From Fragilaria crotonensis (taxonomy: Eukaryota; Bacillariophyta; Fragilariophyceae; Fragilariales; Fragilariaceae): a DNA stretch of 64,000 nucleotides. Positions 25,339-43,912 of the stretch are shown piece after piece (position 1 is the first letter of the stretch; each line of letters begins with the position of its first letter). Made by a program: the position numbers and the translations under genes. The DNA is taken from NCBI GenBank assembly GCA_022925895.1, contig JAKSYS010000216.1:1-64000 (forward strand), in the 5' to 3' direction. The notes beneath the pieces were generated by a model. That model was not told the DNA's origin, did not search any database, and saw only the letters and a list, made by a program, of their open reading frames with translations.

Positions 25339-26757
25339 TCTGTGGGGTTTCTTTAGTAATTTGTCAAATATAATAAAGAATGAATTAATGTGAGTGAGAA
25401 TGATTCATCGATATTGATCCATCGGATGAAATGTAAAACACTCGGAGACCACCTCGAATATCTGAATCGTGCTTCGTAACGCACAACGCGGAACGCGGTA
25501 CTGAAACTATTCCACGATCATTACAGAGAATTCGATGAAACGAACAAAACGTCCAACTCTATTTCAACCAACGCCACTTGCATCGATGCAAATTATTCAT
25601 CAAGATGTCAAGCTTCTTACTTTGGACAACTATGCACTGTGCAAGTTCTTACCTGCAGAGAGGTTTAGTTGTGGATGATTAATACCGTTTTCTCAATGGA
25701 GTGTCTTCGTACTTGTGCTCGAAGGAATGGAGTCTGCTCACGCGTACAGCACCTTAGAGCAGTGGGCAGTACCAGGTACCAGTAGTCTACTAAGACTCTA
25801 CGGTCATTTTAGTATTGGCGATTCGGTCCATGTTTGAACGAAGAGTCAACGAGTCGTGCCAAGTTAAGACTCATTCGACTAAAATAGATACTCCAGTCTC
25901 CAGTCTAACCTCCTACAAGTAGAACCCTATCTGCCATCTGGAGGACTGTAATACCAGATTCAACGTGGGACAGTAATATTTTTCCAATCCCTGAGAAATC
26001 CCATACACAACGAGACGAACATAAAGACATGAGATAATGGTATGTAACTACCTGGTACCGTTGGAAATGTGTCTCATTCTTCATGCTTAAGAATCCGAAT
26101 CCTCCGAGTACTCATACCTTCAACGAGAAGTGTATCTGCCATCGCACAAATGACGGTTTCAAAGAATTGCAAGGCAAGCTAACTTTCTCGCGTTTTGCTT
26201 GAATTCCCAAATGTGTATAGTGTTTAGTGTCCACAGGTGTGGTATTTCTACGTCAGCAAGGTTCTATCACATGGTATCACACATGTTTAACGCATTATAG
26301 CCCCTACGAAGTACTTGTACCTAAGATTCATTGGTATCTTCGGATCGTGGCTGGTGGATGGTAGGCATGGGGCAGCAGTCAGAAGTCGAGACAAATTTGT
26401 AAACGACTTGTGTCACATCCACTATGAATTTTTCGTTTGATGCGTCTAAACAAACATGAAGTCATAGAAAAATAGTCATTGGTCATTAACTATTTTGCTA
26501 CTCTACTGGGAGTGTACTCGGATTCTCGGAGTATGGGACATCGGAACGAATCACCAGACAGGCTCCGAGCTTGCACTTCAGTGGAACCAAACGCGGATGA
26601 TTGTCTATTGCGGATGATCATCCAATGGCGACGATCCGCACTATCATTCGTGTTACCACAAGTATAGCCGTTGAACAATCGTATTTGGTGCCATTGAATT
26701 TCTGGCGAATTGCCTATTGTAGATTGACCATTCCGGTAAACTCTCCACTAGAAAGCA
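25339..26757. other. intergenic between CHMP5 and first Kelch gene
   Basis: Divergent promoters are expected here. No gene or element was recognised. The last 70 bases before 26758 resemble those before the second Kelch gene, so the duplication included some upstream DNA. Confidence 0.45.
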
Positions 26758-28869
26758 ATGATGTTGCTCCGAAAGCCAAAACACTTTGCTGCGGCTTTTG
26801 CTCGTGATCCTGAGGGTAGGAATTCCAATCCCAATCCTGTCAACGATCTCCAGTTCGGAAAAGAATGGAAGGATTTGCCTTGTCCCGGAATTCTACGGCG
26901 CTTTTGCGCAATGACCATGTGGGGCATTGATAAGATGATAGTGGTGGGCGGACGTGATCAAGAATGTCGAATTTTGGACAGTGTTGAGGTGTATGACTTT
27001 TCGAGGTGGGAATGGACGTTCCTTCCTCCTCTGAATCGACCTCGCGAGGAAGGCGTTGCCATCGTTGTGGAGACGAAGCTCTATGTGTTTGGCGGCTTTG
27101 GTAGAGGATGCTATCTGTCCGATTGCGAAGTTTTGGACCTCTGTCAACCGGAAGGGGGCTTTGTTCGCCTCCGAAACGGTTTACCGAAACCTCTCAAGGG
27201 TGCAGTTGCTGTATCGAACGGTCACTGGATATACATCGTCGGTGGTTACAATGCATCCGTTGGACATCTCAATACAGTCTTTGCCTTGGATACGCACACT
27301 TTGGAATGGGATAGTACCTTTCCGAGTCTTTGCACGGCCCGGCACCTTCCAGCAGCGACGGTTTTCGGTGATACACTCGTCGTAGCTGGCGGTCGGTCCC
27401 TTGGAAGGCATGGGGGAGTTAAGCATCTCCGATCAGTAGAATGTATCAACCTCGTCAACGGCACCCGGTGGACCTTCATGACTCCGATGGTTTCCTCTCG
27501 TTCCGGAGCGGTGGCTTTTGTTTCTGATAGGAATGTCTATGTCGTTGGCGGTGAGGTTAGAGGCGATCATCCTGCCTCCACCCTAATGGAGTACGATGGA
27601 ACACGGTGGAGTCAAAAACCCTTTCGCAGTTTGTTTTGTCCCACCCCTGGAACTCTGATAATATCTCCATCGCGAATGACTATGGTATCGATGGACAATT
27701 CATGGGACTTCAAAAGTCTCTCGTGTACTTCAGTTCAAGAATCAGACGCCTTTCTCAAGTTTGACTACAAAAAGTTGCAGCGACTAGAAAACGGACTGAA
27801 TTCACAACCATCGATCGAGCGCGTCCACGAATTTATGCGTCTCTTCCAACTTGCCTTGGAGTGGGATGAGGAACACCGTGGTAGCCACCAACATGGCAAG
27901 ATTGCCATACAGATTCGCAAGTTGCTGACGCAGCCGCACATCACAAAAATCCTTGACGAGGAAGGCGTTGGTTCTGATTACACTGTTGCCAATGTAGCCG
28001 AGAACAATGATTTCTTTATTAGTGACGACGATGACGAGGAAGAGACGAATGATTATGATATTGATGAGGAGACGAAGGATGACGAGGTAGAGACGAAGGA
28101 CGATGAGGCGGAGAAGACGGATACTGAGGCGGAGAAGAAGGAGGATGAGGTCGAGAAGAAGGATGACGAGGCCGAGAAGAAGGAGGAGGATAACGGGTCA
28201 CATTCAGTCTTTGATGATTCCGAAATGGCCTGCCCTGACAGATTAGTACCTGGGGTGATCGACGTGAGGCCTCAGTTTGTGGATGATGATCCGAGTGCCA
28301 TGACACTGTTAGACGATTGTTTCGAAGACCCAGTCGATGTATTCGACTCATCGAAGGGACACAGCAAACCGAAATCAGTTCCTAGTTTCAAAGCGCCAGT
28401 GACAACACTTCCCCGAGTTGTCAGCCCCGATCAAGGCAAAGTCAAGGTGTCGACGATTGTCAACTCCGAAGCCAATGATTCGGTTGCGGTTTCGCTCAGA
28501 GTGGTTAGTCCTGACCGAGGTCGCGACAAGGCGTCCAAGACAACGGACGCGAATAAGAAGGCTGCTGCAATACTTCATCCGGTGGTCAGCCCTGACCAAG
28601 GTCGAAGCAAGGCACCAAAGACCCCCACCAAACATCCCATTAAAATACCTCCGCAATCGGCCTATCCGGACCACGGCAGGCGCAAGTCATCCAAGATTGC
28701 AGACGGGGACACAGTTGCCACTTCTGAGTCTTCGCTCTTGACAAAGCAGACACGTGGCATCATCTTCAAGGCACCTAGTAGGAAGGTTTCCGGTAGACCA
28801 GCCATTCCTTTACGAGCTGTTCATGCGATCTGCGATGACGACGCCAGCACTGAGGGGTTTTGGGTGTAG
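26758..28869 (+). CDS. Kelch-repeat protein 1 with acidic and SPDQG-repeat tail
   Basis: A 703-residue single-exon protein. Residues about 55-330 hold Kelch motifs (IVVGGRD, YVFGGFGRG, YIVGGYNA, VVAGGRSLG, YVVGGEVR, each followed by a spaced Trp), forming a probable beta-propeller that acts as a protein-interaction platform. Residues about 340-420 are helical. At 28020-28195 the protein runs D/E/K-rich with repeats such as DDEAEKK. The tail has four to five copies of a VVSPDxGR(x)K motif, followed by an ending (STEGFWV) homologous to that of copy 2. No BTB, F-box or membrane segment was seen. Start: tandem ATGATG at 26758, alignable with copy 2. Its function is not known. Confidence 0.85.
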   Translation: MMLLRKPKHFAAAFARDPEGRNSNPNPVNDLQFGKEWKDLPCPGILRRFCAMTMWGIDKMIVVGGRDQECRILDSVEVYDFSRWEWTFLPPLNRPREEGVAIVVETKLYVFGGFGRGCYLSDCEVLDLCQPEGGFVRLRNGLPKPLKGAVAVSNGHWIYIVGGYNASVGHLNTVFALDTHTLEWDSTFPSLCTARHLPAATVFGDTLVVAGGRSLGRHGGVKHLRSVECINLVNGTRWTFMTPMVSSRSGAVAFVSDRNVYVVGGEVRGDHPASTLMEYDGTRWSQKPFRSLFCPTPGTLIISPSRMTMVSMDNSWDFKSLSCTSVQESDAFLKFDYKKLQRLENGLNSQPSIERVHEFMRLFQLALEWDEEHRGSHQHGKIAIQIRKLLTQPHITKILDEEGVGSDYTVANVAENNDFFISDDDDEEETNDYDIDEETKDDEVETKDDEAEKTDTEAEKKEDEVEKKDDEAEKKEEDNGSHSVFDDSEMACPDRLVPGVIDVRPQFVDDDPSAMTLLDDCFEDPVDVFDSSKGHSKPKSVPSFKAPVTTLPRVVSPDQGKVKVSTIVNSEANDSVAVSLRVVSPDRGRDKASKTTDANKKAAAILHPVVSPDQGRSKAPKTPTKHPIKIPPQSAYPDHGRRKSSKIADGDTVATSESSLLTKQTRGIIFKAPSRKVSGRPAIPLRAVHAICDDDASTEGFWV
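28021..28192 (+). repeat. acidic short tandem repeat within Kelch protein 1
   Basis: Imperfect GAGG(T/C)(A/G/C)GAGA(A/C)GAAGGA-type units encode DDEVETK, DDEAEKT, EDEVEKK and DDEAEKK. Expected to vary in copy number between strains. Confidence 0.7.
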
Positions 28870-29962
28870 TTTCTATAGTCCGCTTGCCTTCTCTTTGGGA
28901 CGCTCTAGTATTGAGGCACCCATTGCATACATCAGAATTGCATTCAATCTTGAACCATACGTAATGAAGCTCTAAATAATTTCATTCTCCATGCCTTCGC
29001 GTCCATGTCAACAATTAAAGGGCTGGTTTGACCAAGCGTCAAGTAGGTGGCGGTGGGATGATAACTGATTCATGAAAGTCGCGATTCGGTTGTGTTTGCA
29101 ATTGTCGTAGGTCCTTTGCACCGATTGGTCCTTCTGCCGAGGTAAAACATAAAGACTAGCCAACTGATCGAGGCCGCCTTTAATTTCTCTGGTGCTCTTC
29201 TCTTTTGCTTGCCATGCCAATCAGGACTTGGTTTTGCGCTTGTGAATCAGCCACAACCAGAGTACAGCAGCTGGAGATGGATTGATCCTCTTTCGGATTT
29301 TACATTCACGTCATTTCTAAGCATCCTTGTTGTGCGCCTGAGTTGAAGCAACCACCATAACGCTAGTAACGCACACGCATGTGCTGGAATAGGAATGCAT
29401 CTGAAAACATGGTGCGGACAGACAAATTGCACCCTTTAAATAACATCTGCTAAAGCTTAAGGGCACAATATCTGCACACATCTGACCGTTCCATTATACT
29501 CCACTTCATAGATGTAAGTGCTTAGCAGAAATTGAGATTATAATTGCACACCTTGAATATATGAATGGGGAAGTTAACATAGCTAAGCTATTTCGTTAAA
29601 TCTATGTGCATGTTCACCCCTATGTAGCTTGGGCTTCACAAACACAGTGTAAGCTCAGCATTTGTAATGCTTCATTACCTTACGACCTGGCAATGTAGAA
29701 CTTCCACGTTTATACTAGCTCCCTCATCATCTGTTCATAATTTGCCATCACGTATTCCTCATATTGTTGTGCTTTCCCATCTGCTATAAGCAATCGATTT
29801 GGTTTCAAACAAAGCTTGGTTTGAGATTGGAGGTGGCCATCTTCTTGTTGGAGGCAAGTTGTTGTGTTCGACGAGTGTTTTCAGCGTGCGGCGGTCGGGG
29901 TACTATGAGGATGACAAAGTGGGTTTTGTAATATTATTAGATGGTGGTTGGGCTGAGGGTGT
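28870..29962. other. intergenic, 3' of Kelch 1
   Basis: No gene recognised; short AT-rich frames only. The transposon nest begins at its right edge. Confidence 0.45.
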
Positions 29963-29970
29963 GTGTATAC

Positions 29971-30757
29971 CAGGGTTGGGAAAAACCACTACTCGTTGTT
30001 TTGCCGAAAGTGGTTTTTGCAAAAACCACCGAAAAACCACCGAAAAACCACCGAAAAACCACCGAAAAACCACCGAAAAACCACCGAAAAACCACCGAAA
30101 AACCACTAAAACCACTTGAAAAACCACTTTGCGTGTTAAAATCACGTAGTAAAGTCTTGCCACGTAGAAAAGGTACCGTCATTGTCGTAACAGTGACTGC
30201 AAAAATCACCTGCACACTAGCTAGTTGATGACTTGCATTCAACACAACCACTATAACTCCATACATCATGCTGTGAATCAGAAGATTGGCAATCACTGTC
30301 AATTCCATCAATATCAATGGGTTGGGCAAGATTCCTCCTTATCAAATCATGTGATAATTCGCAACTAAATACTGCGACCATGACGGATCATCATTTCCAG
30401 GCTCCATCTTCACTCCATTGGCAGCATTTGAATGGACAAGTGCTGGAGGTTGTGTGCAAACACGTGAACTTAACGATACAAGAAATGTGATCAGTTACAC
30501 TCTTTGTGGCGCGTGGTTATTGAACAGGTGAGTTACGATTCCTACTTACAATGTACTATGTAAGTGTATTGAGACTACTGGTACTGTGTGTCAATATGAC
30601 GGTGTGGCCCTCACTTTACGTACGAGGTCTGCTATTTAATTAGCAAAAACCACTTTTTAGCTCGAACAAGAAAAACCACTTAAATTTTGGAAAAGTTGTT
30701 TTTGGGGGTTTAAACCCAAAAACCACTTCGAGCAAAAACCACACCTTGCCAACCCTG
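29971..30757. mobile_element. hAT-family MITE with 8-bp target duplication
   Basis: 787 bp with CAGGGTTGG at the left end and CCAACCCTG at the right end. It is flanked by perfect 8-bp direct repeats GTGTATAC (29963-29970 and 30758-30765). An 8-bp duplication and CAGGG termini are hallmarks of hAT. Both subterminal zones are full of AAAAACCAC (reverse GTGGTTTTT), the kind of motif hAT transposases bind. No transposase frame is present, so it is non-autonomous. Confidence 0.85.
30021..30108 (+). repeat. 11-bp tandem array AAAAACCACCG x8
   Basis: Eight head-to-tail units, the last ending CTA instead of CCG. The unit is the subterminal motif of the surrounding hAT MITE, so the array is probably an expansion of a transposase-binding site. 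Confidence 0.9.
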
Positions 30758-31022
30758 GTGTATACAGCAAAAAACTTGGAAACTTGGATCGAAGTTTCCA
30801 AGTTTCCAACGGAATCTCACCTCCAAAAAACAAAATGGATTCCCTAATTCGTGACTTAAGGACCACCGTTACGTAAGGGCGTTCCTTAACCAGATACATT
30901 CGAGGCCACGTTGGACCAATTTTCGGTATTTACTCCGAGTGTGGTCATTTTCATGTATTTTTTCATTCCTTAACGGGGTACATTCGATGAGTTTTCCGGG
31001 TTCAAAAAACCAATTATGTCTG

Positions 31023-31105
31023 TAATTACATTCGATTCGAGTGTGATTACATTCAAAGGGCTTTTGAATGTGATCACACTCGAATCGAATGTGATCACAT
31101 TGGAA
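31023..31105. repeat. long near-perfect hairpin
   Basis: ATTACATTCGATTCGAGTG on the left arm pairs with CACTCGAATCGAATGTGAT on the right around a GGGC-containing centre. It lies in the left arm of element B. Confidence 0.8.
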
Positions 31106-31127
31106 TAAACATATACCAATTCCATCT

Positions 31128-31243
31128 GTAGATTTTCCTGTAGAGCACACTCCATCTCTCGCAGCCATCCCTTTCTCTCAATCTTCATAGATTTTCCTGT
31201 AGAGCACACTCCATCTCTCGCAGCCATCCCTTTCTCTCAATCG
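31128..31243 (+). repeat. two-copy 60-bp tandem duplication
   Basis: TAGATTTTCCTGTAGAGCAC and following bases are repeated with a 60-bp period (31128 and 31188) and no internal differences noticed. Confidence 0.9.
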
Positions 31244-31528
31244 GCCTCTTCAGTATTGTAGCAGGCGTCAAATTCTACGCGAGTATGCGAGTAGTACTGG
31301 GTTGTGTTTCGTCGTCGTAATTGGCACGGGGCGAGTGTTTCCTGACATCGTGACAAATGTAAAAATCAATTTATAGAATGTACCGGTAGTCGTACATATT
31401 GTTCAAGGATGTGTAGATTCTGCAACGAACGTGCATTGTATGGAATGTACAGTGCTAGTACTATGTTTATGAAAAAGGAGTGTATTGATTCAAAATTACG
31501 AGTGTATTTTTAAATTACGCAAGGCTAA

Positions 31529-32598
31529 GACCGTTCCTTAACCTGACACACTGAGTCCGACACATTCGATCGGTTTGAATTTTTCCCTCATTTTCGGCCG
31601 GCTCGCGGGTCGAGTGTGTCCATTCATCTTAACCAAAAAAAGTAAGTGTGTCCAGAAACGCAGATGCGAACACACTGGTTTCTACTGTAATCATGAACAG
31701 TGGCAATAGATGCTAGTAGTTTATCGGCACTGTGCGTCATACTACACGACCGATGCAACTACTACTACTAGAGTTCATCATGTTATGTTCCATTGACAAG
31801 TGATTCCTAGAGTATGGTCCGAACAGATGATTACTATGCTAATATTCCTCATCTGAATCCTATCCCTGAAGCTTCATGATATCAAAAGTTGGCATCTTGG
31901 GTGTCCAATTACTTGTAGTACAAGCATGTTTTTACGTGGTCGAAATAGGTTCCGTCGTCTTCGTCATCCTCATCGTTCAATGACAGTGCTGTACCGAGCA
32001 ACTTCGTGTCTTGCCATTATCATCTTTGCCGTTGTCGCCGTCTTCACTGTAATTGTCGACGTAGACATTGTCCCTCGTCGTCGTTGTTGCAACCGGCTGT
32101 TCGTCGTCGTCGTTACTGTCGCTCGTATCGTCATAACAATCTTTACTCGGATCGCAGCTGTGAACGGAATATGTTGCCAAGAGAGAATGCTGACAGGTTC
32201 ATACTAGCATCAGTTGGGAGGAATGACATGTCAACACCTTCAACCATTGGAAGAAGATAGTCGATCATGATTGCAATACTGCATGTGATCAACAACTTGG
32301 AGTATGGATCAGTGTACAATTTACTGTGCGGAATGCACGTATACTTCTATTTTGACGTCACATTTGCGTGACGTTTCATCTCCGAACGTTCGAAAATGTT
32401 CCAGTGTGGCCACACTGAAAAGGCAGTGTGACACATTCAAACCGGTCTCTGTGTGTGTCGATGGAGCAAACGAGTGTGGCCACACTGCCTGAAACCCGGA
32501 AATGAATGTTTTTAAACATGTGTATCAGTGGGCAAACTGCCGAAGCACATGGAAAAAAATCGAATGTGTCCTCAAATGTGTCAGGTTAAGAGAGGGTC
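31529..32598. mobile_element. PIF/Harbinger-like element C, nested in B
   Basis: 1070 bp beginning GACCGTTCCTTAACCTGACA and ending with an imperfect complement (TGTCAGGTTAAGAGAGGGTC). TAA flanks at 31526-31528 and 32599-32601. Its ends resemble those of element B (CGTTCCTTAACC core), so the two are related families. The interior has short frames only (for example Asp-rich 31977-32180, minus), none a recognised transposase. Confidence 0.8.
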
Positions 32599-34537
32599 TA
32601 AGGCAATCAACACATTCGCAAAGAAGCGGCAAAATGGTCAAAATCCCGACCGGCTCGGGCTGGCTCGGGGTTAATTGATATTTTTAAAAATGTCCAACGT
32701 GGCCTCGAATGTATCTGGTTAAGGAACGCCCTAATTACATTTCACGAAAACGAGAAGTTTTGACTTCTCGTTCATGTAAAATCCTCGTCCCCACCGTTAC
32801 GTAAAAAGCAGTCCACAAATACGAAAACATCAAGTCGACTGAGTCAAGATAGGAATCTTGATGTGAAACACATATATGTTTCAATCGTTCGCTCCATCCT
32901 AGTCGTACTGTGTACTGGGTACGTCTACAGATACGGTAAAGTTGTACGAATTGGAACCAAAAGTTATTAGATCGTCGCTCATCGAAATCCGACAATGACG
33001 ACCGTTTTGACAATGTTCCTCATGTAGAACCATCACAAACCACCGCACTAGCATCGATCGTCGTTTCTACGGCGCATGCAATTGTAGAAACGACGTCTTC
33101 ATCTGATCATTATCTGGCGAGAAAACCACGTTCATGTTTGATGCCAGCAGTGACAGTAGACAGTAGCATCTGTCAACAGGGCGAGTTAAACGCACATAGC
33201 AGTAGACCTACCAGAAGGAATCCAGAATCTTGAGATATTTCAAGGAAAGGCTGTGTTTTTTGCGGATCAACGAAAACCTCGGCAGATTTTCGTTGACGAC
33301 GGGATATGAGGCGCATCTGAGTGATTTCCTGAAAGGTTTTGGGGACCCGTTTTCGTACGTAAGCAACGGTGGTAAAATGGACCCTCGAAAACGAAAAAGT
33401 TTTCGTTGTCGTGAAATGTGATTACGTAACGGTGGGCCTAACTTGGATTTCCGCCAAGTTTGGCAATCCAAGTTTCGTATGCGCTATATTTCCGCGCGCG
33501 TCTTCGTAATCGGAGTGCTCAAGTACTTGTATTGCTATCAACGGTATCAACTGATGAGTGCGCTCATCGTCGTCGGGAGCCATGTTTCAACGATGAGGAA
33601 CGACACCACACCAGAGGGTCCTCATCAGTCACAATATGATTGCCCCAGTCCTACTTTAGCTATTTCGTCTAAAATAGTGAAAGCCATTAATTCAAGGGTT
33701 GTATTTCTATTCAATCTAAGATAGCAAATGCGTAATAACGAGCGAGTTCGAGAAAGGGAAGGCAATTACAGCCATACGGATGTCGCCCAACTCAAAGATT
33801 TAGGGGCACAGAGACGGAGAAACGCAGCTCTGGTGGGAGAGGTTGCCGTTATTCAGATCCTGAGAAGGGACACATTGAGGGAAACGAGGCACTGGTGGGA
33901 GAATTTGCCAAATAGGAAGCGTGCGGCACGGCAGAAACAACAAGGCAGATCGAACCTTGGCTGACAACAAGGGCCTTCCCTGTGGCTAAAAATCAGCTCC
34001 TTGACGTGACGGAGGCATGATAAGTGTGATTGACGATGAATCTTTCTCATCAGCGGAAAGGTGTGTAGAATCATCCCAAACAACCCGAACTGGACGTTTC
34101 CCCTCCGGGAGTGCCATGGTCCCACATGAGGGAGGAAGCGTACACTTCTCAGGGCGAAGTCCTTCACGCAAGTCATTCCACAAGCAAGTCTTCTCTTCTT
34201 CAAAGTGGCTGCTCAGCACTCATGTCAGGTTCAACGAGACGACGAGGCGATGAGGCGACGACGAGGACTGCATTGTGCGTCATCTGTTGTGCCTCGTTGT
34301 GATAGTGGTCAAGAACGCAGTGCATGTCGAATCTTCGGACAAAACATCTGTCCGGATAGTACTCACGTTTGTCTTCTTCGAAAGAAAACTTGGGAGTTTC
34401 CAACTTGGAAACAAAGTTTGAATTTTGCTGAATACATGGCACTGCACCTGGACAAAAATAACACAACGATTTCTTTCCCAAGATTCCGTTGGGAACTTCG
34501 AAACTTGGATCCAAGTTCTGAAAATTTTTGCTGTATA

Positions 34538-35829
34538 CACACACACTGAAACCTAAACCTTACGGAATTTCTGCTTCTATCCTAGTATTTCTTCTACAGG
34601 ACTTTTTGTGTATCAGATTGCCACGCCAAACGGACAAAATAGACTGATCGAATTGGTTGGACACTGTTGGTATTCGTAGGTACTCAAGTACAATGGACTA
34701 TTATCATTTTCTGATTTGACGGATTTTATTATAGAAGAAGAAAGTCCGCAGATTTCTTTCTCCTAATTTCTTTCTTCTACTTAAGCAAATTGAAGCTTCT
34801 TCAATTTTCTTCTAGTTTCTCCCTTTTTCTCCTTTTTTCTAAACAGCTTCTTCTATTTTCTTCCTTTTGCTTCCTTTCGCTTACTCCGTTGCAAGTCGTA
34901 GAATCTTAGTTTCGTTGATACGAACTCGATCACATAAATACGTGTCGTACATAAAATTCACATTAGAGTTGCGAGGTATAAACTGCTTTAAAAACCTATT
35001 TTGGACCATGCCACACTCTTTTCCAAATGAGCGAGTAGAGCTTCTCTCTTTTTCTTCCTTTTTCTCCTTTTTTCTTCACAGACTTTTTTCTTTCTTCCTT
35101 TCTCTTCTTTTTTCTTCCAGATTTTTTCCTTTCTTTCCTTTACTTGCTTTTTCTTCCGGGGTTTCTATGAATGTATATAGAACTTGCATATGAATCGATG
35201 GACTTGTTTTGCTCGTCACGTTTTCAATTTCGGTTGATGTCCAAGGTTATCACCTCTCATGGCAAGCAGAAAAAAAGAAACGGTTTTGAAAAACGTCCTT
35301 TAAACATGAAAGAAAAACTAGTCCGAAAGCAAGCATTCCGGACCTCCTGTAGAGAGTAGGGTTAGGACTTCGGACAAAAGCTGGTACTTGCAACTTGTAG
35401 TACACAGAGTACGTCGAACAGACGTACGAGGGGCGATATCGCTGTTTGATTTTCGGACATATTTGTACGCCAGCTACAGTACTACGCCTCTAGAAGGAGC
35501 TATTAAGTCAATTCTGAAAGAATATGTAACAGAAATTGGGTGCGAATGCTCTTTAAATGACAAATGCAAGCGACCACTCTATCATATGATTCTCTTCGTC
35601 TATGAGATACAGGATACAGTATGAGTAATATCATACCGTACGTTTTATACGTCCTACACACAGCACGTAACGCGGGTGCAGCATGCACACGAGTCCTCCC
35701 ACTGTTCAACCACACCAAGCATCGGTGTGAACAATCCTTTCATAAAGTTGCCAGAGAATTTTTGGCGGGTTCAACATAGTACATCCTGTCGTCGATTTTC
35801 AATTCTGCGAAACCGTCCATTGGACAACA
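34538..35829. other. intergenic with long pyrimidine-rich tract
   Basis: From about 34734 to 35165 the plus strand is dominated by TTTCTTC, TTTTTCTCC and similar units, with a less biased centre (34880-35030). No gene was recognised. The last 100 bases are similar to the upstream flank of Kelch 1. Confidence 0.5.
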
Positions 35830-38800
35830 ATGAAGCTGTTCCGAAAGCAAAAGACCTGTGCTGCGGCTAGTATTCGTGATCCTGAACGTAAGACTTCCAT
35901 TCCAAATACTAGCAACGATCTCCAGTTCGCAAAAGAATGGAAGGATTTGCCTTGTCCCGGAATTCTACGGCGCTTTTGCGCAATGACCATGTGGGGCATT
36001 GATAAGATGATAGTGGTGGGCGGACGTGATCAAGAATGTCGAATTTTGGACAGTGTTGAGGTGTATGACTTTTCGAGGTGGGAATGGACGTTCCTTCCTC
36101 CTCTGAATCGACCTCGCGAGGAAGGCGTTGCCATCGTTGTGGAGACGAAGCTCTATGTGTTTGGCGGCTTTGGTAGAGGATGCTATCTGTCCGATTGCGA
36201 AGTTTTGGACCTCTGTCAACCGGAAGGGGGCTTTGTTCGCCTCCGAAACGGTTTACCGAAACCTCTCAAAGGTGCAGTTGCTGTATCGAACGGTCACTGG
36301 ATATACATCGTCGGTGGTTACAATGCAACCGTTGGACATCTCGATACAGTCTTTGCCTTGGATACGCACTCTTTGGAATGGGATAGTACCTTTCCGAGTC
36401 TTTGCACGGCCCGGCACCTTCCAGCAGTGACGGTTTTCGGTGACACACTCGTCGTTGCTGGCGGTCGGTCCCTTGGAAGGCGTGGGGGAGTTAAGGATCT
36501 CCGATCAGTAGAATGTTTCAACCTCGTCGATGGCGCCCGGTGGAGCTTCATGGCTCCGATGGTTTCCTCTCGTTCTGGAGCGGTGGCGTTTGTGTTTAAT
36601 GGGAATGTCTACGTGATTGGCGGCGAGGTTAGGAAAGATCATCCTGCCTCCAGCGTAATGCGCTACAACGGGACACGGTGGAGTCAGAAACCCTTTCGCA
36701 GCATGATCCGTTCCTGCCCTGGAACTCTGTTAGTATCACCATCGCGCATGACTTTGGTGCCGATGGATCATTTATGGGACTTCAAATGTCTCGCGTGTAC
36801 CTCAGTCAAAGAATCAGACGCCTTTCTCAAGTTTGAAAAGTTGCAACGACTGGAATACGAACTGACATCTGAACCATCAATCGAACGCGTCCGCGAATTG
36901 ATGCACCTTTATCAACTAGCCATGGAGTGGGATGAGGAACACCATGGTAGCCACCAGCACGAAATGATTGCCACGCAGATTCGCAATTTGCTCACTCAGC
37001 CTCACATTACAAAAATTCTCAACGAGGAAGGCGATGGTTCCGATTCCACCATTGTCACTGTAGCTGAGAAGGATGAGGTCTTCGATTGTGAAAATGGCGA
37101 TAATCAGGAGGGGGATTATTCGCAACCTGTCCTTGGTGTCACTGAAATAGCACGCCCTGACGGACCGGTGCCTGGTGTGAATTCAGTGGCTAGTGCCATG
37201 GTGCCTGTAAGAACCGGAGAATGCATGGATGCGCCAGTCTCTGCGTGTGAGGATAAAGAAAATCCATCTGACGTCGAGAGCACTGACCTCGTAAGTCAAA
37301 GCTTCTCTGACAAGATGCCGATGGAACAACACAATCCTGTTGCCAATGTACACTTAATCAATGACTCAGTCGATGAGAAGAAGGGCGTGACAATCCCGGT
37401 CAACAATTTTTCAAACGCTGCACCATTGGAAGAAAGGAATCAAGATTGTATCCTTAAAAGGGACGAGCAAAATGTAAAAGGAAACGATACCCACGACTCG
37501 GTGGATGCACTTTATGGCAGCGCAGTCGTCGGAAGCAGAAGCGTGGTTGACAACGATGTGCAAGGCATGTCGCAGACGGGACAATTCAATTTCGAATCAG
37601 TGTCTGACGCAAAGGGGCCTGCTACATCAGGAGACTCCAGCGGTGAATCAGTGGATGTATTCAATGGCACGATTGCTCCCGTTGTTGCCGGAAGCGCGAT
37701 GCTATCGGAACAAAGTAAACTCGAATCCGTCGCTACCACTATAGCGCCGATTCCCACAGGAGACTTTAGCGATGATTCTGTGAATGCATTCGATGGCACT
37801 ACCTCCGTGACGGTCGTTGGTGGCGAGGACCTGGCAAGCACGACGCCATCGGAAGTGAGCCATATCGAACCACTCGTTGAGGCTACTGAGCCGATCATAA
37901 CAGGAGATTCGAACGATGGCATTACCAATGCAATGGTTATCGGAAGCAGAAGCGTGTTTGGCGACGACATGCCAAGCACGACATCATCGGAAGAGAGCAA
38001 TGTCAAGTCAGTCGGTAGTATTATTGAGCCGATTCCATCAGGAGACTCTAGCGGTTTAGCTGCGGATGATATCAATGGCACTGAAACTCCGGTGGTTGTC
38101 GGGAGCAGAAGCTTGGTTGGCGACGACGTACCAAGCATTACACCATCGGAACCAAGCAATCTCGAATCAGTCGATTTTATGATTGGGCCGAGTCCAGCAG
38201 GAGACTCGAGCGCTGAAGCTGTGAATGCATTAGATGGCACTACCACCGCAATCGTGGTGGTTGGCGATGACTTGGTTAGGACGACGCCGCCGGAGCTATG
38301 CAATCTCGAACCACTCGTTGACGCGACTGAGGCGATCATCGCAGGAGACTCGACCGATGGCATACTTACTCCTGTGGTTGTCGGGAGCAGAAGCGTTTTT
38401 GGCAACGACGTGCCATTTACGACACCATCGGAACAAAACAATCTCGAATCAGTCGGAGGTATCATTGAGCCGATTCCAGCAGAAGACTCTAGCGGTAAAG
38501 CTGTGGGTGATATCAACGGCAATGAAACCCAGGTGGTTGTCGGCAGCAGAAGCTTGGTTGGCGACGGCATGCCAAGCATGACATTATCGGAACGAATCAA
38601 TCTCGAATCAGTCGCTACCGCGATTGAGCCGATTCCCACGGGAGACTCTAGCGATGATTCTGTGAATGCATTCGATGGCACTACCTCCGTGATGGTCGTT
38701 GGTGGCGAGGACCTGGCAAACACGACGCCATCGGAAGTGAGCCATATCGAACCACTCGTTGAGGCTACTGAGCCGATCATAACAGGAGATTCGAACGATG

Positions 38801-40437
38801 GCATTACCAATGCAATGGTTATCGGAAGCAGAAGCTTGTTTGGCGACGACATGCCAAGCACGACATCATCGGAAGAGAGCAATGTCAAGTCAGTCGGTAG
38901 TATTATTGAGCCAATTCCATCAGGAGACTCTAGCGGTTTAGCTGTGGGTGATATCAATGGCACTGAAACTCCGGTGGTTGTCGGGAGCAGAAGCGTTGCT
39001 GCCAACGACGTCCCAGGCAAGATGCTGACTGATCCAGTCACTGATGCAATTGGGCCAATCACAGGAGGAGATTTACGGAACGAATCACTTGTTGACGCGA
39101 ATGAGCCGATCACTCCGGGAGACTCGAGCGATGGAATTGCCAAGGCCATGGTCGTCGGGAACAGAAGCGCGGTTGGCGACAACGCGCCATTCGCGACACC
39201 ATCAGAAACCAGCGATCTCGTATCAGTCGTTATCGCGATTGAGCCGATTCCAACAGGAAACTCTACCGTTCAAACTGTGGATGATACCAATGGCATACTC
39301 ACTCCTGTGGTTGTCGGGAGCAAAAGCGTTGTTGGCAACGACGTACCAAGCGCGACACCATCGCAACAAAGCAACCTCGAATCATTCGCCACCACGATTG
39401 GACCGATTCCAACAGGAGACGCTGGCGGTGAAGCTGTGGATGAGGTCATTGGCATTATTACTCCGGTAGATGTAGGCCGCAGAAGCTTTGTTGGCGACGA
39501 CCTGCCTTCATCGGAACAACGCAATCTTGAATCATCAGCTAAATCGATTGTAAAAGGAGAACGCATTGATGAATCAAACGGCGTCACTGATTGCATCACC
39601 GTTCAAATGGATATCAGGAGCTCTAGCCTGGCAGGTAACGGCATGCCAATGGTAGTGCCGGAGGGGCCACACAAGGTTGTACCAGTACCTGCTACCAAGG
39701 TCACGATTACCAATGGAGCCCACATTGTGGAATCTATCGATTCATCTGAAGGGAAGGCCATTCCGATCAACAAAGTGTCAAGTATTTCGCCGTTAGAACA
39801 TCGCAAACTTGGATCAGCGCCATCTGAAGGGAAGGCCATTCCGATCAACAAAGTGTCAAGTATTTCGCCGGTAGAACATCGCAAACTTGGATCAGCGCCA
39901 TCTGAAGGGAAGGCCATTTCCATCAACAAAGTGTCAAGTATTTCGCCGGTAGAACATCGCAAACTTGGATCAGCGCCCAGTAGCAAGAAGTTGGGAACTA
40001 CCCTTCCCCGAGTGGTCAGCCCTGACCAAGGTAGGGGCAAAGTATCGAAGACTATTGTCTCTGCAGCCAACGGTCCGGTAGTCTCTCCCCGAGTGATTAG
40101 TCCTGACCAGGGTAGTCGCACGGTTTCCAATTCAATTGGTGCGAATAAGAAGGCGGGTGAAATGCTGACCCCTGTGGTCAGCCCCGACCAAGGTAGAAGC
40201 AAGGTATCAAAGACCAAACATCCTGTTAAAACAACTCCGCGAGTGGTCAGTCCTGACGTGGGCACGCACAAGGCGTTCAAGATTGCTGACGGGAATTCTG
40301 TCTCTATTGATTCCTCGCCTTCTGGTAAACAACTACGAGGCAAGACCTTCAAGGCAACCAGTAGACGCGCCATTCCAGTGCGTCCAACGCAAGCTACCTG
40401 CGATGACGAGTCCAGCGTCGAGGAGCTTTGGGCCTAG
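35830..40437 (+). CDS. Kelch-repeat protein 2 with giant internally repeated domain
   Basis: A 1535-residue single-exon protein. The N-terminal Kelch propeller (about 50-330) is almost identical to that of copy 1. A helical segment and acidic linker follow. From residue about 560 to 1275 there are about 14 repeats of two lengths, 53 and 41 residues, with the consensus VVVGSRSxxGDDxPSTTPSExSNLESVxxxIEPIPxGDSS (written here in shortened form). Next come three exact-type 26-residue repeats (SEGKAIPINKVSSIS) and about five VVSPDxGR(x)K motifs shared with copy 1. The ending SVEELWA aligns with that of copy 1. The repeat domain is Ser/Thr/Asp-rich and probably disordered, with many possible phosphorylation sites. 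No signal peptide or membrane segment. The function is not known; it may serve as a scaffold. Start is the ATG at 35830 after a duplicated leader. Confidence 0.85.
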   Translation: MKLFRKQKTCAAASIRDPERKTSIPNTSNDLQFAKEWKDLPCPGILRRFCAMTMWGIDKMIVVGGRDQECRILDSVEVYDFSRWEWTFLPPLNRPREEGVAIVVETKLYVFGGFGRGCYLSDCEVLDLCQPEGGFVRLRNGLPKPLKGAVAVSNGHWIYIVGGYNATVGHLDTVFALDTHSLEWDSTFPSLCTARHLPAVTVFGDTLVVAGGRSLGRRGGVKDLRSVECFNLVDGARWSFMAPMVSSRSGAVAFVFNGNVYVIGGEVRKDHPASSVMRYNGTRWSQKPFRSMIRSCPGTLLVSPSRMTLVPMDHLWDFKCLACTSVKESDAFLKFEKLQRLEYELTSEPSIERVRELMHLYQLAMEWDEEHHGSHQHEMIATQIRNLLTQPHITKILNEEGDGSDSTIVTVAEKDEVFDCENGDNQEGDYSQPVLGVTEIARPDGPVPGVNSVASAMVPVRTGECMDAPVSACEDKENPSDVESTDLVSQSFSDKMPMEQHNPVANVHLINDSVDEKKGVTIPVNNFSNAAPLEERNQDCILKRDEQNVKGNDTHDSVDALYGSAVVGSRSVVDNDVQGMSQTGQFNFESVSDAKGPATSGDSSGESVDVFNGTIAPVVAGSAMLSEQSKLESVATTIAPIPTGDFSDDSVNAFDGTTSVTVVGGEDLASTTPSEVSHIEPLVEATEPIITGDSNDGITNAMVIGSRSVFGDDMPSTTSSEESNVKSVGSIIEPIPSGDSSGLAADDINGTETPVVVGSRSLVGDDVPSITPSEPSNLESVDFMIGPSPAGDSSAEAVNALDGTTTAIVVVGDDLVRTTPPELCNLEPLVDATEAIIAGDSTDGILTPVVVGSRSVFGNDVPFTTPSEQNNLESVGGIIEPIPAEDSSGKAVGDINGNETQVVVGSRSLVGDGMPSMTLSERINLESVATAIEPIPTGDSSDDSVNAFDGTTSVMVVGGEDLANTTPSEVSHIEPLVEATEPIITGDSNDGITNAMVIGSRSLFGDDMPSTTSSEESNVKSVGSIIEPIPSGDSSGLAVGDINGTETPVVVGSRSVAANDVPGKMLTDPVTDAIGPITGGDLRNESLVDANEPITPGDSSDGIAKAMVVGNRSAVGDNAPFATPSETSDLVSVVIAIEPIPTGNSTVQTVDDTNGILTPVVVGSKSVVGNDVPSATPSQQSNLESFATTIGPIPTGDAGGEAVDEVIGIITPVDVGRRSFVGDDLPSSEQRNLESSAKSIVKGERIDESNGVTDCITVQMDIRSSSLAGNGMPMVVPEGPHKVVPVPATKVTITNGAHIVESIDSSEGKAIPINKVSSISPLEHRKLGSAPSEGKAIPINKVSSISPVEHRKLGSAPSEGKAISINKVSSISPVEHRKLGSAPSSKKLGTTLPRVVSPDQGRGKVSKTIVSAANGPVVSPRVISPDQGSRTVSNSIGANKKAGEMLTPVVSPDQGRSKVSKTKHPVKTTPRVVSPDVGTHKAFKIADGNSVSIDSSPSGKQLRGKTFKATSRRAIPVRPTQATCDDESSVEELWA
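37505..39650 (+). repeat. 159/123-nt protein-coding repeats in Kelch protein 2
   Basis: About 14 units of 53 or 41 codons. In the centre they follow a short-long-long order (41+53+53 = 147 codons, 441 nt) used twice. The segments 37749-38112 and 38631-38994 are nearly identical and 882 nt apart, which is two such trimers. Confidence 0.85.
39745..39978 (+). repeat. three-copy 78-nt tandem repeat in Kelch protein 2
   Basis: Units start at 39745, 39823 and 39901 (TCTGAAGGGAAGGCCATT) and keep the reading frame (26 codons each). They are almost identical, so recently amplified. Confidence 0.9.
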
Positions 40438-42136: not shown

Positions 42137-43912
42137 ATGAGACGTTTCCGGAAACCCTTTACCAAACGTGTGAATCCAAACGATGGAAGAAAGGAACTAT
42201 CCCTCCATGGAACTTCTCTTACTCATCCCTCGTTGTCAACTCCTGATCCGTTAGAATTCGCCAAAACATGGAAAGATTTGCCCTGTCCTCGTACTCCTCG
42301 TCGATGCTGCGCAACCGCCATGTGGGAATGCAAGACTGATGATTGTTTGCAGAGTGATGTTTCTACGACCAAAATGATTGTCGTGGGCGGTCGTGATCGG
42401 GATCGTCGCATGTTGGACAGCGTGGAAATTTACGACTTTGCACGATGGGAATGGACACTCCTTCCTCCTCTGAGTCGACCACGAGAGGAATGTGCCGCGA
42501 TTGTTGTGGAGAACAAACTCTACGTGATTGGTGGCTTTAGTGATGGTTCCTACCTGTCGGATTGTGAAGTCTTGGATTTGATTCGTCCACACCAACGTGG
42601 ATTCACTCGCCTCCAAAGTGATCTGCCGGAGGCGTTGACCAGTCTGGCTGTGGTATCGAAAGGTCACTGGATTTATGTATTAGGTGGTTATCCTGGTGTT
42701 GAAGACCATTTCGATACGGTCTATGCGCTTAATACGCGTACGTTGGAATGGGACCTCTCGTTGCCCAACCTCAACGAGAATCGATACTTGCCGACATTGG
42801 TTGTCTGGAAAGACCAACTGATCGTCGCAGGTGGTCGGACGTGCGATCGGCATGGAAGGGTGCAATATCTTAAATCAGTGGAAACTCTTGACATTGCTCG
42901 AGGCACGAAATGGACAACCATGGCGACCATGCCATTGCCGCGTGCTGGAGCTGTGGGCTTTACTCTCGATGGGAACTTGATCCTAGCTGGAGGTGAAGAG
43001 AGAGACAATCTTCCTGCATTTTCTTTCTTGTGGTACGATGGATCTAGCTGGAACTACAAGCCGTTCCCAGCCATGGTTAATTTGTGTCCTGGAAATCTAG
43101 ATGTATCGCTGCAACGAGAACGTCTCGTGTATTTGGATGTTCACCGTGAGTTTAAATTTCTAACCTTCAAAGAAGCGATCAAGCCCTCGAATGATGACAA
43201 GACCAAGCAAACCGACTGGGAGGAGTCTCACCATGCGGTGTTGAAAGACGTTGAGTCCCTGGAAGACGATGATTTGGTTCGGCTTGCCAACCGTGAATTA
43301 TTCGGTGACAAGTCTCCTCGGGGAGTTGCTGATCCTGGACCCAATCCAAGGTCTAGACGGATCAACTCCATCGACGCTGTCTCTCTTGGATTTAAGCTTC
43401 TCCCGGACGCTCCTTCGGATGACTCGCCAATGGTAATTCAATCCGTAATGAATGCTAAGACGGTGCCATACATTCCCAGGAGTGATGCACCACAATCCAA
43501 AGTTCAGGAGGCAACAGATCTCGAGGAATTGATTCGAGTCAAGGAAAAAGCCATTGAATTACATCCATCTATGGAACTGCTGTCTGAGATTATGGAACTC
43601 TTCCGACAGGTGATTGAACGGTACGAGGAGGCTGATGATGTCCGGCACGAAGAAATTGCAACGAGGATGCACGTGTTTTTGTCTCTGCCAGTGATTGCCA
43701 AACTCTTGAAAGAATCTGCAGCTGACGCAAACACGCCAGAGATGAGCGACGCTCAAGAAAACCAAATAGTGGCAACGAATGCAATGGATGAAGGGATTTC
43801 ATGTGCAGACTTTGAAGAAACAGTGGACGAAGTCATCACCTCCCTCCTGCGTCGACTCTCCACGTCAATAGATTCCGACGGGAGCTTTACCGAAAGCTTT
43901 AATGAACGTTGA
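42137..43912 (+). CDS. Kelch-repeat protein 3
   Basis: A 591-residue single-exon protein homologous to copies 1 and 2 but clearly more diverged. The leader FRKPF and the block LEFAKTWKDLPCPRTPRRCCATAMW precede Kelch blades MIVVGGRDRD, YVIGGFSDG, YVLGGYPG, IVAGGRTCD and LILAGGEER, each with trailing Trp residues (about residues 75-330). The C-terminal half is mostly helical (KAIELHPSMELLSEIMELFRQ) and matches the helical segment of the other copies. It lacks both the giant repeats and the SPDQG tail, so it probably keeps the ancestral architecture. It is a presumed interaction scaffold; partners are not known. Confidence 0.87.
   Translation: MRRFRKPFTKRVNPNDGRKELSLHGTSLTHPSLSTPDPLEFAKTWKDLPCPRTPRRCCATAMWECKTDDCLQSDVSTTKMIVVGGRDRDRRMLDSVEIYDFARWEWTLLPPLSRPREECAAIVVENKLYVIGGFSDGSYLSDCEVLDLIRPHQRGFTRLQSDLPEALTSLAVVSKGHWIYVLGGYPGVEDHFDTVYALNTRTLEWDLSLPNLNENRYLPTLVVWKDQLIVAGGRTCDRHGRVQYLKSVETLDIARGTKWTTMATMPLPRAGAVGFTLDGNLILAGGEERDNLPAFSFLWYDGSSWNYKPFPAMVNLCPGNLDVSLQRERLVYLDVHREFKFLTFKEAIKPSNDDKTKQTDWEESHHAVLKDVESLEDDDLVRLANRELFGDKSPRGVADPGPNPRSRRINSIDAVSLGFKLLPDAPSDDSPMVIQSVMNAKTVPYIPRSDAPQSKVQEATDLEELIRVKEKAIELHPSMELLSEIMELFRQVIERYEEADDVRHEEIATRMHVFLSLPVIAKLLKESAADANTPEMSDAQENQIVATNAMDEGISCADFEETVDEVITSLLRRLSTSIDSDGSFTESFNER

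What the first reader, a model, noticed from the sequence alone, without database searches (positions are those of the whole stretch)
29963..34537. Five DNA transposons nested in a single 4.6-kb interval
Ends and target duplications can be read directly. An outer TIR element (TACAGCAAAAA ends) holds a hAT MITE at its left tip and Harbinger-like element A inside it. A holds B, and B holds C. Target duplications TAA/TAA/TAA and GTGTATAC show the order of events: outer first, then A, then B, then C. The hAT insertion is independently later than the outer element. This gives a relative clock for four families in one place.
Basis: partly seen in the sequence, partly recalled or inferred. Interest (0 to 1): 0.75.

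Follow-up and report, generated by a model that had tools for sequence, protein, structure and literature searches.

The report
Five transposons nested in one another
In the genome of what is probably a diatom, one jumping gene was hit by others, one inside the next, and other copies in the same genome show the sites before they were hit; this is well-resolved but ordinary transposon biology, with a modest hint that these elements tend to land in each other's ends.

Summary
The nest is real. Five DNA transposons lie in 29957-34546: an outer element, a hAT MITE in its left end, A inside the outer, B inside A, C inside B. All ten target-duplication copies are exact. Copies elsewhere in the same 62.1-Mb genome show uninterrupted sites for A (5 of 5 outer copies read across it), B (13 of 14 A copies read) and C (2 of 3 B copies). 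The outer is thus the same kind as A, B and C: TNA duplications, with longer relatives carrying Harbinger-type transposases (weak for A). The nest gives an order, not a numeric clock: private substitutions are 4/1171 (outer) but 10/700 (A) and 18/736 (hAT). A sixth element (34560-35347, CWG duplications in other copies) lies 10 bases to the right. B sits in a TAA inside A's terminal repeat, and a different element occupies the same TAA in another A copy: a hint of a hotspot. New member of a known kind.

The parts
29957..34546 (.). Outer element (non-autonomous, about 1.2 kb of its own sequence), TIR GGGTGTGTGTATACAGCAAAAA, TSD TGA at 29954-29956 and 34547-34549
   Evidence: Copies C329, C677 (99%) and C201 (93%); ends read in C329 and C677
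29971..30757 (.). hAT MITE (787 bp), ends CAGGGTTGG.., 8-bp TSD GTGTATAC at 29963-29970 and 30758-30765, inside the outer's left TIR
   Evidence: 6 of 6 other copies read at both ends (L002-L007) have their own 8-bp TSD. Relative with a hAT transposase at C42
30860..33438 (.). Element A (about 0.72 kb of its own), TIR GG(A/C)CCACCGTTACGTAAT.., TSD TAA at 30857-30859 and 33439-33441
   Evidence: Uninterrupted site in 5 of 5 outer copies read across it; 56 genomic matches to the A end at up to 2 mismatches, reversed control 10; 14 copies read
30877..32731 (.). Element B (about 0.78 kb of its own), TIR GGGCGTTCCTTAACCAGATACATTCG, TSD TAA at 30874-30876 and 32732-32734, inside A's left TIR
   Evidence: B copies at C170 (TSD TCA) and C797 (TSD TTA); uninterrupted A left end in 13 of 14 A copies read
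31529..32598 (.). Element C (1070 bp), TIR GACCGTTCCTTAACCTGACACA, TSD TAA at 31526-31528 and 32599-32601
   Evidence: C copy at C775 (99%, TSD TTA); exact uninterrupted site in B copies C170 and C797
34560..35347 (.). Sixth, neighbouring element (about 790 bp), TIR GAGGTTCCGGAAT, CWG-type 3-bp TSD in other copies; the window copy has lost its first bases and left TSD
   Evidence: 18 loci aligned, 16 of them to 35347 or beyond

Best explanation
This is a stack of cut-and-paste DNA transposon insertions between two kelch-protein genes. A short, internally deleted Harbinger-type element (outer) inserted at a TGA. Later A inserted at a TAA inside it, B at a TAA inside A's left terminal repeat, and C at a TAA inside B. 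A hAT MITE inserted, at an unknown time after the outer, into the outer's left terminal repeat. Each insertion duplicated its target (3 bp for the Harbinger type, 8 bp for hAT). Shown: ends, duplications, uninterrupted sites, copies elsewhere, and transposase-bearing relatives of the outer, B and C (weakly A) in the same genome. Inferred: that transposases of such relatives moved these elements, and that splitting the terminal repeats of A and of the outer has immobilised them.
For: All ten duplication copies exact. Uninterrupted sites: A's in 5 of 5 outer copies read across it, B's in 13 of 14 A copies read, some of them duplicated loci, C's in 2 of 3 B copies. Other copies with the same ends for each element. 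Harbinger-type transposase PF13359: 150 matches scored of 333 candidates in this genome; by position one lies between outer-family ends at C127, between C-family ends at C197 and at C218, and between ends resembling B's (about 90 bp each, 76-81%) at C76. The C127 and C197 ORFs pass Pfam cut-offs. hAT relative at C42 with hAT-type ends, 8-bp TSD and transposase.
Against: No empty allele of the host site: the left flank is unique in the assembly, so the outer's own insertion rests on its ends and a 3-bp TGA, with one mismatch in the last bases. One B copy (C325) stops matching near C's site for an unknown reason. 58 bp of the outer present in C329 just right of A's site are missing in the window. 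Private substitutions of A and hAT exceed those of the outer, which needs unsampled donors. A's 4.5-kb relative matches the transposase model below cut-off (19.5 against 24.8 bits). C127's left end is altered and C76's transposase match has a stop codon, so working partners are not shown; the 12.6 kb between the C42 hAT ends was mostly not read.
Confidence: 0.96

Rival explanations
1. Part of the nest was built elsewhere and moved here as one unit: the outer element, already carrying A (and perhaps B and C), transposed into this site.
For: The outer copy has 4/1171 private substitutions while A inside it has 10/700; the outer's two flanks have matching TGA.
Against: The outer copies read across the A site all lack A (5 of 5); no source nest was seen among the copies read.
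Confidence: 0.15
2. Assembly error: repeats from different places were stitched together.
For: The parts are repeated elsewhere in a draft of 881 contigs.
Against: Each of the five insertions carries an exact target duplication, and A's, B's and C's junctions match uninterrupted sites in other copies.
Confidence: 0.02
3. The numeric ages are informative after all: A and hAT are older than the outer copy and were captured, not inserted later.
For: A and hAT private substitution rates exceed the outer's (Fisher p 0.011 and 6e-5).
Against: The duplications around A and hAT are made of outer sequence that other outer copies have once, so the outer sequence was there first; donors of cut-and-paste elements need not survive or be sampled.
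Confidence: 0.01

Closest known systems
PIF/Harbinger (PHIS superfamily) non-autonomous elements, Tourist-like MITEs
   Same: TIRs starting G(G/A), 3-bp TNA duplications (18 of 24 sites TWA), longer relatives with DDE_Tnp_4 matches in the genome
   Different: 6 of 24 sites are TCA/TGA, outside strict TWA; no Myb-like match in the second ORFs scanned
NuwaII group of PHIS (C|TNA|G target; PMC4482050, abstract and passages read)
   Same: TNA duplications; C before or G after the duplication at 19 of 48 half-sites against 22% expected (p 0.005)
   Different: Only 6 of 24 sites have both C and G; no phylogeny of the transposases was made
NuwaI group of PHIS (CWG target; PMC4482050, NuwaI section read) for the neighbouring sixth element
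   Same: CWG duplications in 14 of 16 copies read by eye; a 3.8-kb relative at C140 with a DDE_Tnp_4 match of 30.1 bits
   Different: That paper found NuwaI in animals only, here the host is an alga; the C140 relative's own duplication reads CCG, not CWG; TIR starts GAGG, not GGG
hAT MITEs
   Same: 8-bp TSD in the window copy and 6 of 6 other copies read, CAG..CTG ends; relative with a hAT transposase
   Different: Nothing noted
Nested PIF/Harbinger-like elements in Medicago truncatula (PMC2213677, abstract and passages read)
   Same: Harbinger-like elements interrupted by later insertions, including a composite of two related elements
   Different: The passages seen describe mainly retrotransposon or unidentified inserts; here four TNA-type elements stack three deep inside one another, plus a hAT

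Membership tests
PIF/Harbinger (A, B, C) | 3-bp TWA target duplication | tested here: met
   Window A, B and C all TAA; over 24 sites of these and related elements 18 are TWA, 6 TCA/TGA
PIF/Harbinger (outer) | 3-bp TWA target duplication | tested here: inconclusive
   C677, C147 and C72 copies TAA; window copy TGA
[quoted passage not shown]
PIF/Harbinger (outer, B, C) | DDE transposase of the Harbinger type in a relative with related ends | tested here: met
   C127 83.7 bits PF13359; C197 53.7 bits PF13359 and 90.7 bits PF04827; C76 66.3 bits PF13359 with one TAG, its first ORF alone 20 bits PF04827, under the cut-off 22
PIF/Harbinger (A) | DDE transposase of the Harbinger type in a relative with related ends | tested here: inconclusive
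   C614 ORF 19.5 bits, E 7.8e-4, under the cut-off 24.8
PIF/Harbinger | Second gene with a Myb-like domain | tested here: inconclusive
   B and C relatives have a second ORF, 32% identical to each other over 330 residues, but no Pfam match and, for the one tried, no PDB match
NuwaII | C|TNA|G target | tested here: inconclusive
   TNA met; both flanking C and G in 6 of 24 sites
hAT | 8-bp target duplication | tested here: met
   Window plus 6 of 6 other copies read
hAT | hAT transposase in a relative with related ends | tested here: met
   C42: end CAGGGATGGCAAAAACCAC, TSD GAGCTGCG, PF05699 match between the ends; interior of 12.6 kb mostly not read
NuwaI (sixth element) | CWG target duplication | tested here: met
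   14 of 16 copies by eye; the other two (one duplicated locus) CGG/CGG and CGG/CAG; the longer C140 relative CCG/CCG
NuwaI (sixth element) | Two ORFs, DDE and Myb/SANT | tested here: inconclusive
   A 128-aa DDE fragment at C140; a Myb/SANT ORF was not looked for

The most novel reading that the evidence does not exclude
PHIS-type elements in this alga preferentially insert at or inside the ends of one another (for example the TAA inside A's terminal repeat, used by B here and by a different 1.9-kb element at C38), so that the elements disable each other's ends and limit their own load.
Probability: 0.2. Interest if true: 0.5.

Novelty: new member of a known kind. Interest (0 to 1): 0.3.

Why it matters
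It is a clean worked example of nested DNA transposons in a probable diatom with at least 150 Harbinger-type transposase matches, and it gives the ends of four such families. If the end-targeting hint held genome-wide, it would be a testable mechanism for how Harbinger-type elements limit themselves.

Tried and rejected
Outer as an element with TACAGC ends: rejected by copies that continue to GGGTGTGTG. The 34560 repeat as an LTR before the 1535-aa ORF: rejected; the ORF is a kelch protein and the repeat has inverted ends and CWG duplications. An empty host allele: the left flank 28870-29980 matches only itself; the right flank beyond the sixth element was not searched. The kelch paralogues as an empty site: their similarity within the window does not reach the nest's edges. 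A numeric clock: rejected. PDB relatives of the B relative's second ORF and of the C127 transposase: none at E up to 1. Background density of TNA-type inverted-repeat elements in 114.8 kb already held: 14 bases with up to 2 mismatches 2 hits (one duplicated locus) against 0.33 expected; 14/3 4 against 3.33; 12/1 2 against 0.33; 12/2 2 against 2.33; too little to test end-targeting. A first typed pattern for A's end was too strict (2 matches) and was replaced. Jiang and Wessler 2001 on nested MITEs: seen only as a reference entry; the paper is not held.

Dropped rows: the 24-site table leaves out sites with one end lost, unread or irregular (among them C329, C201, C127, C753, C221/C266/C91, the L025/L029 pair, C284, C1, C449).

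Full report
Setting. The window is contig C133 of an unnamed 62.1-Mb genome in 881 contigs. It has 61 light-harvesting (PF00504) matches. One such protein matches best the PDB chains 6ly5 and 6l4u, fucoxanthin antenna proteins; that these come from the diatom Chaetoceros gracilis is recalled. A second one matched first several chains of 9vfj, whose organism the output does not show. The host is therefore probably, not certainly, a diatom. The nest lies between kelch-protein ORFs 26758-28869 and 35830-40437.

Anatomy. The five elements and ten duplication copies were read base by base. Outer 29957-34546, TSD TGA. hAT MITE 29971-30757, TSD GTGTATAC, inside the outer's left terminal repeat. A 30860-33438, TSD TAA. 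B 30877-32731, TSD TAA, 17 bases inside A's left end. C 31529-32598, TSD TAA, inside B.

Copies and uninterrupted sites. Outer: the C329 and C677 copies differ from the window copy by 0.6% and 1.0%, C201 by 5.6%. Of five outer copies read across the A site (L010, L011, L012, L018, L019), all five read GTGACTTAACTTGG where the window has the TAA doubled around A. The same comparison shows 58 bp of C329 just right of A's site that the window lacks. A: 14 copies were read, among them two pairs with shared flanks (L074/L078, L025/L029); 13 have an uninterrupted left end at the TAA that holds B in the window, though L025 and L029 diverge right after it, and the 14th (C38) has another insert there. 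Eleven of the 14 show matching TNA duplications and C38; L025 and L029 are irregular. B: copies at C170 and C797 have an exact site without C; a third (C325) stops matching at about the same place for an unknown reason. C: a copy at C775 is 99% identical with TSD TTA. hAT: 6 of 6 other copies read at both ends have their own 8-bp duplications.

Correction of the outer ends. In C677 both ends, and in C329 the left end, run 11 bases beyond TACAGC to GGGTGTGTGTATACAGC, with TAA outside; C329's right end has the same bases but is followed by TATAA. A subfamily (C72, C147, C753) ends in GGTGGTGTG or GGCGGTGTG with TAA at the ends read. C201 has lost its left end and C127's left end is altered. The outer is of the same TNA kind as A, B and C.

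Transposases. PF13359 has 150 scored matches of 333 candidates, a lower bound. By position, a match lies between outer-family ends at C127, between C-family ends at C197 and C218 (same flanks, so probably one insertion duplicated), and at C76 between ends that resemble B's over about 90 bp each at 76-81%. The C127 and C197 proteins pass the Pfam cut-off. The first ORF of C76 is 51% identical to C197's over 172 residues, and their second ORFs are 32% identical over 330 but match no Pfam model. A's 4.5-kb relative at C614 matches PF13359 below its cut-off. B and C therefore look like sister families; C127's protein is more distant, 20% over 291 residues. The hAT MITE has a relative at C42 with hAT-type ends and a transposase match between them.

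Order versus clock. Nesting gives outer > A > B > C and outer > hAT; hAT is not ordered against A, B, C. Substitutions private to the window copy: outer 4/1171 (against 3 copies), A 10/700 (against 11), B 2/773 (against 2), hAT 18/736 (against 6). Recounted with one rule, columns without gaps in any copy: 4/1171, 10/660, 2/762, 17/704. C differs from C775 at 8/1072, of which 3 are private to the window, 3 to C775 and 2 unresolved. A and hAT exceed the outer (p 0.011 and 6e-5 on the first counts). The simple reading is that their donors are not among the copies sampled; the numbers cannot date the insertions.

Target choice. Of 24 sites of these families and relatives read by eye from the outputs, 13 are TAA, 5 TTA, 3 TGA, 3 TCA; C before or G after the duplication occurs at 19 of 48 half-sites against 22% expected (p 0.005). 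Several insertions lie at or in ends of other such elements: B in A (window); a 1885-bp element with TAA duplication at the same TAA of an A copy at C38; the outer at C329 in what matches the end of a GGCCCACCCTTACGG inverted-repeat element seen at C677, though no partner end was found near it at C329; B at C797 directly against an inverted-repeat element of about 0.53 kb; A at C497 directly against ..GGGTGGCCC, where no partner end was found within 1 kb. A has 16 TWA and 47 TNA sites. The window case and the C38 case came to notice as nests, the background sample is small, and clustering of transposons between genes is an obvious alternative, so this stays a hint.

Known and new. Nested PIF/Harbinger-like elements are reported in Medicago (PMC2213677, abstract and passages), and nested MITEs by Jiang and Wessler 2001 (seen only as a reference entry; content recalled). 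PMC2836001 (passages) describes 3-bp duplications, an extended target preference and the need for two proteins; PMC10288884 (passages) raises self-insertion as a possibility for long elements. PIF-Harbinger is listed among the superfamilies of the diatom Cyclotella cryptica (PMC7466962, passages). The listings of searches show no title about such a nest in a diatom; that is a limited search. Verdict: a real, well-resolved, ordinary nest.

Noticed in passing
window 34560-35347; L014-L034 (18 loci): A roughly 790-bp element with TIR GAGGTTCCGGAAT and CWG duplications (14 of 16 copies read) and a DDE_Tnp_4-bearing relative at C140 (duplication CCG). CWG is the mark of the NuwaI group, which PMC4482050 found in animals only.
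   Followed up: partly
L087/L079 (C38): Another A copy carries a 1885-bp element (ends GGCCAATGCTTACAG / GGCTGATGCTTACGG) at the very TAA where B sits in the window.
   Followed up: yes
L012/L013 (C677): An outer copy interrupted by a different CAG-ended insert with 8-bp duplication TCCGGGAG.
   Followed up: no
L031/L093 (C42): A hAT relative of the MITE, with a transposase match, sits in a copy of the sixth element; its ends are 12.6 kb apart.
   Followed up: partly
window 26713-28016, 35785-37082, 42257-42753: Tandem kelch-protein genes; the 35830-40437 ORF has internal 441-bp and 78-bp repeats.
   Followed up: no
L043 (C325): A B copy stops matching at about the position of C's insertion, with unrelated sequence after it.
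   Followed up: partly
L074/L078, L025/L029, C197/C218: Pairs of contigs with the same insertion and flanks, suggesting haplotigs or segmental duplications in the assembly.
   Followed up: no
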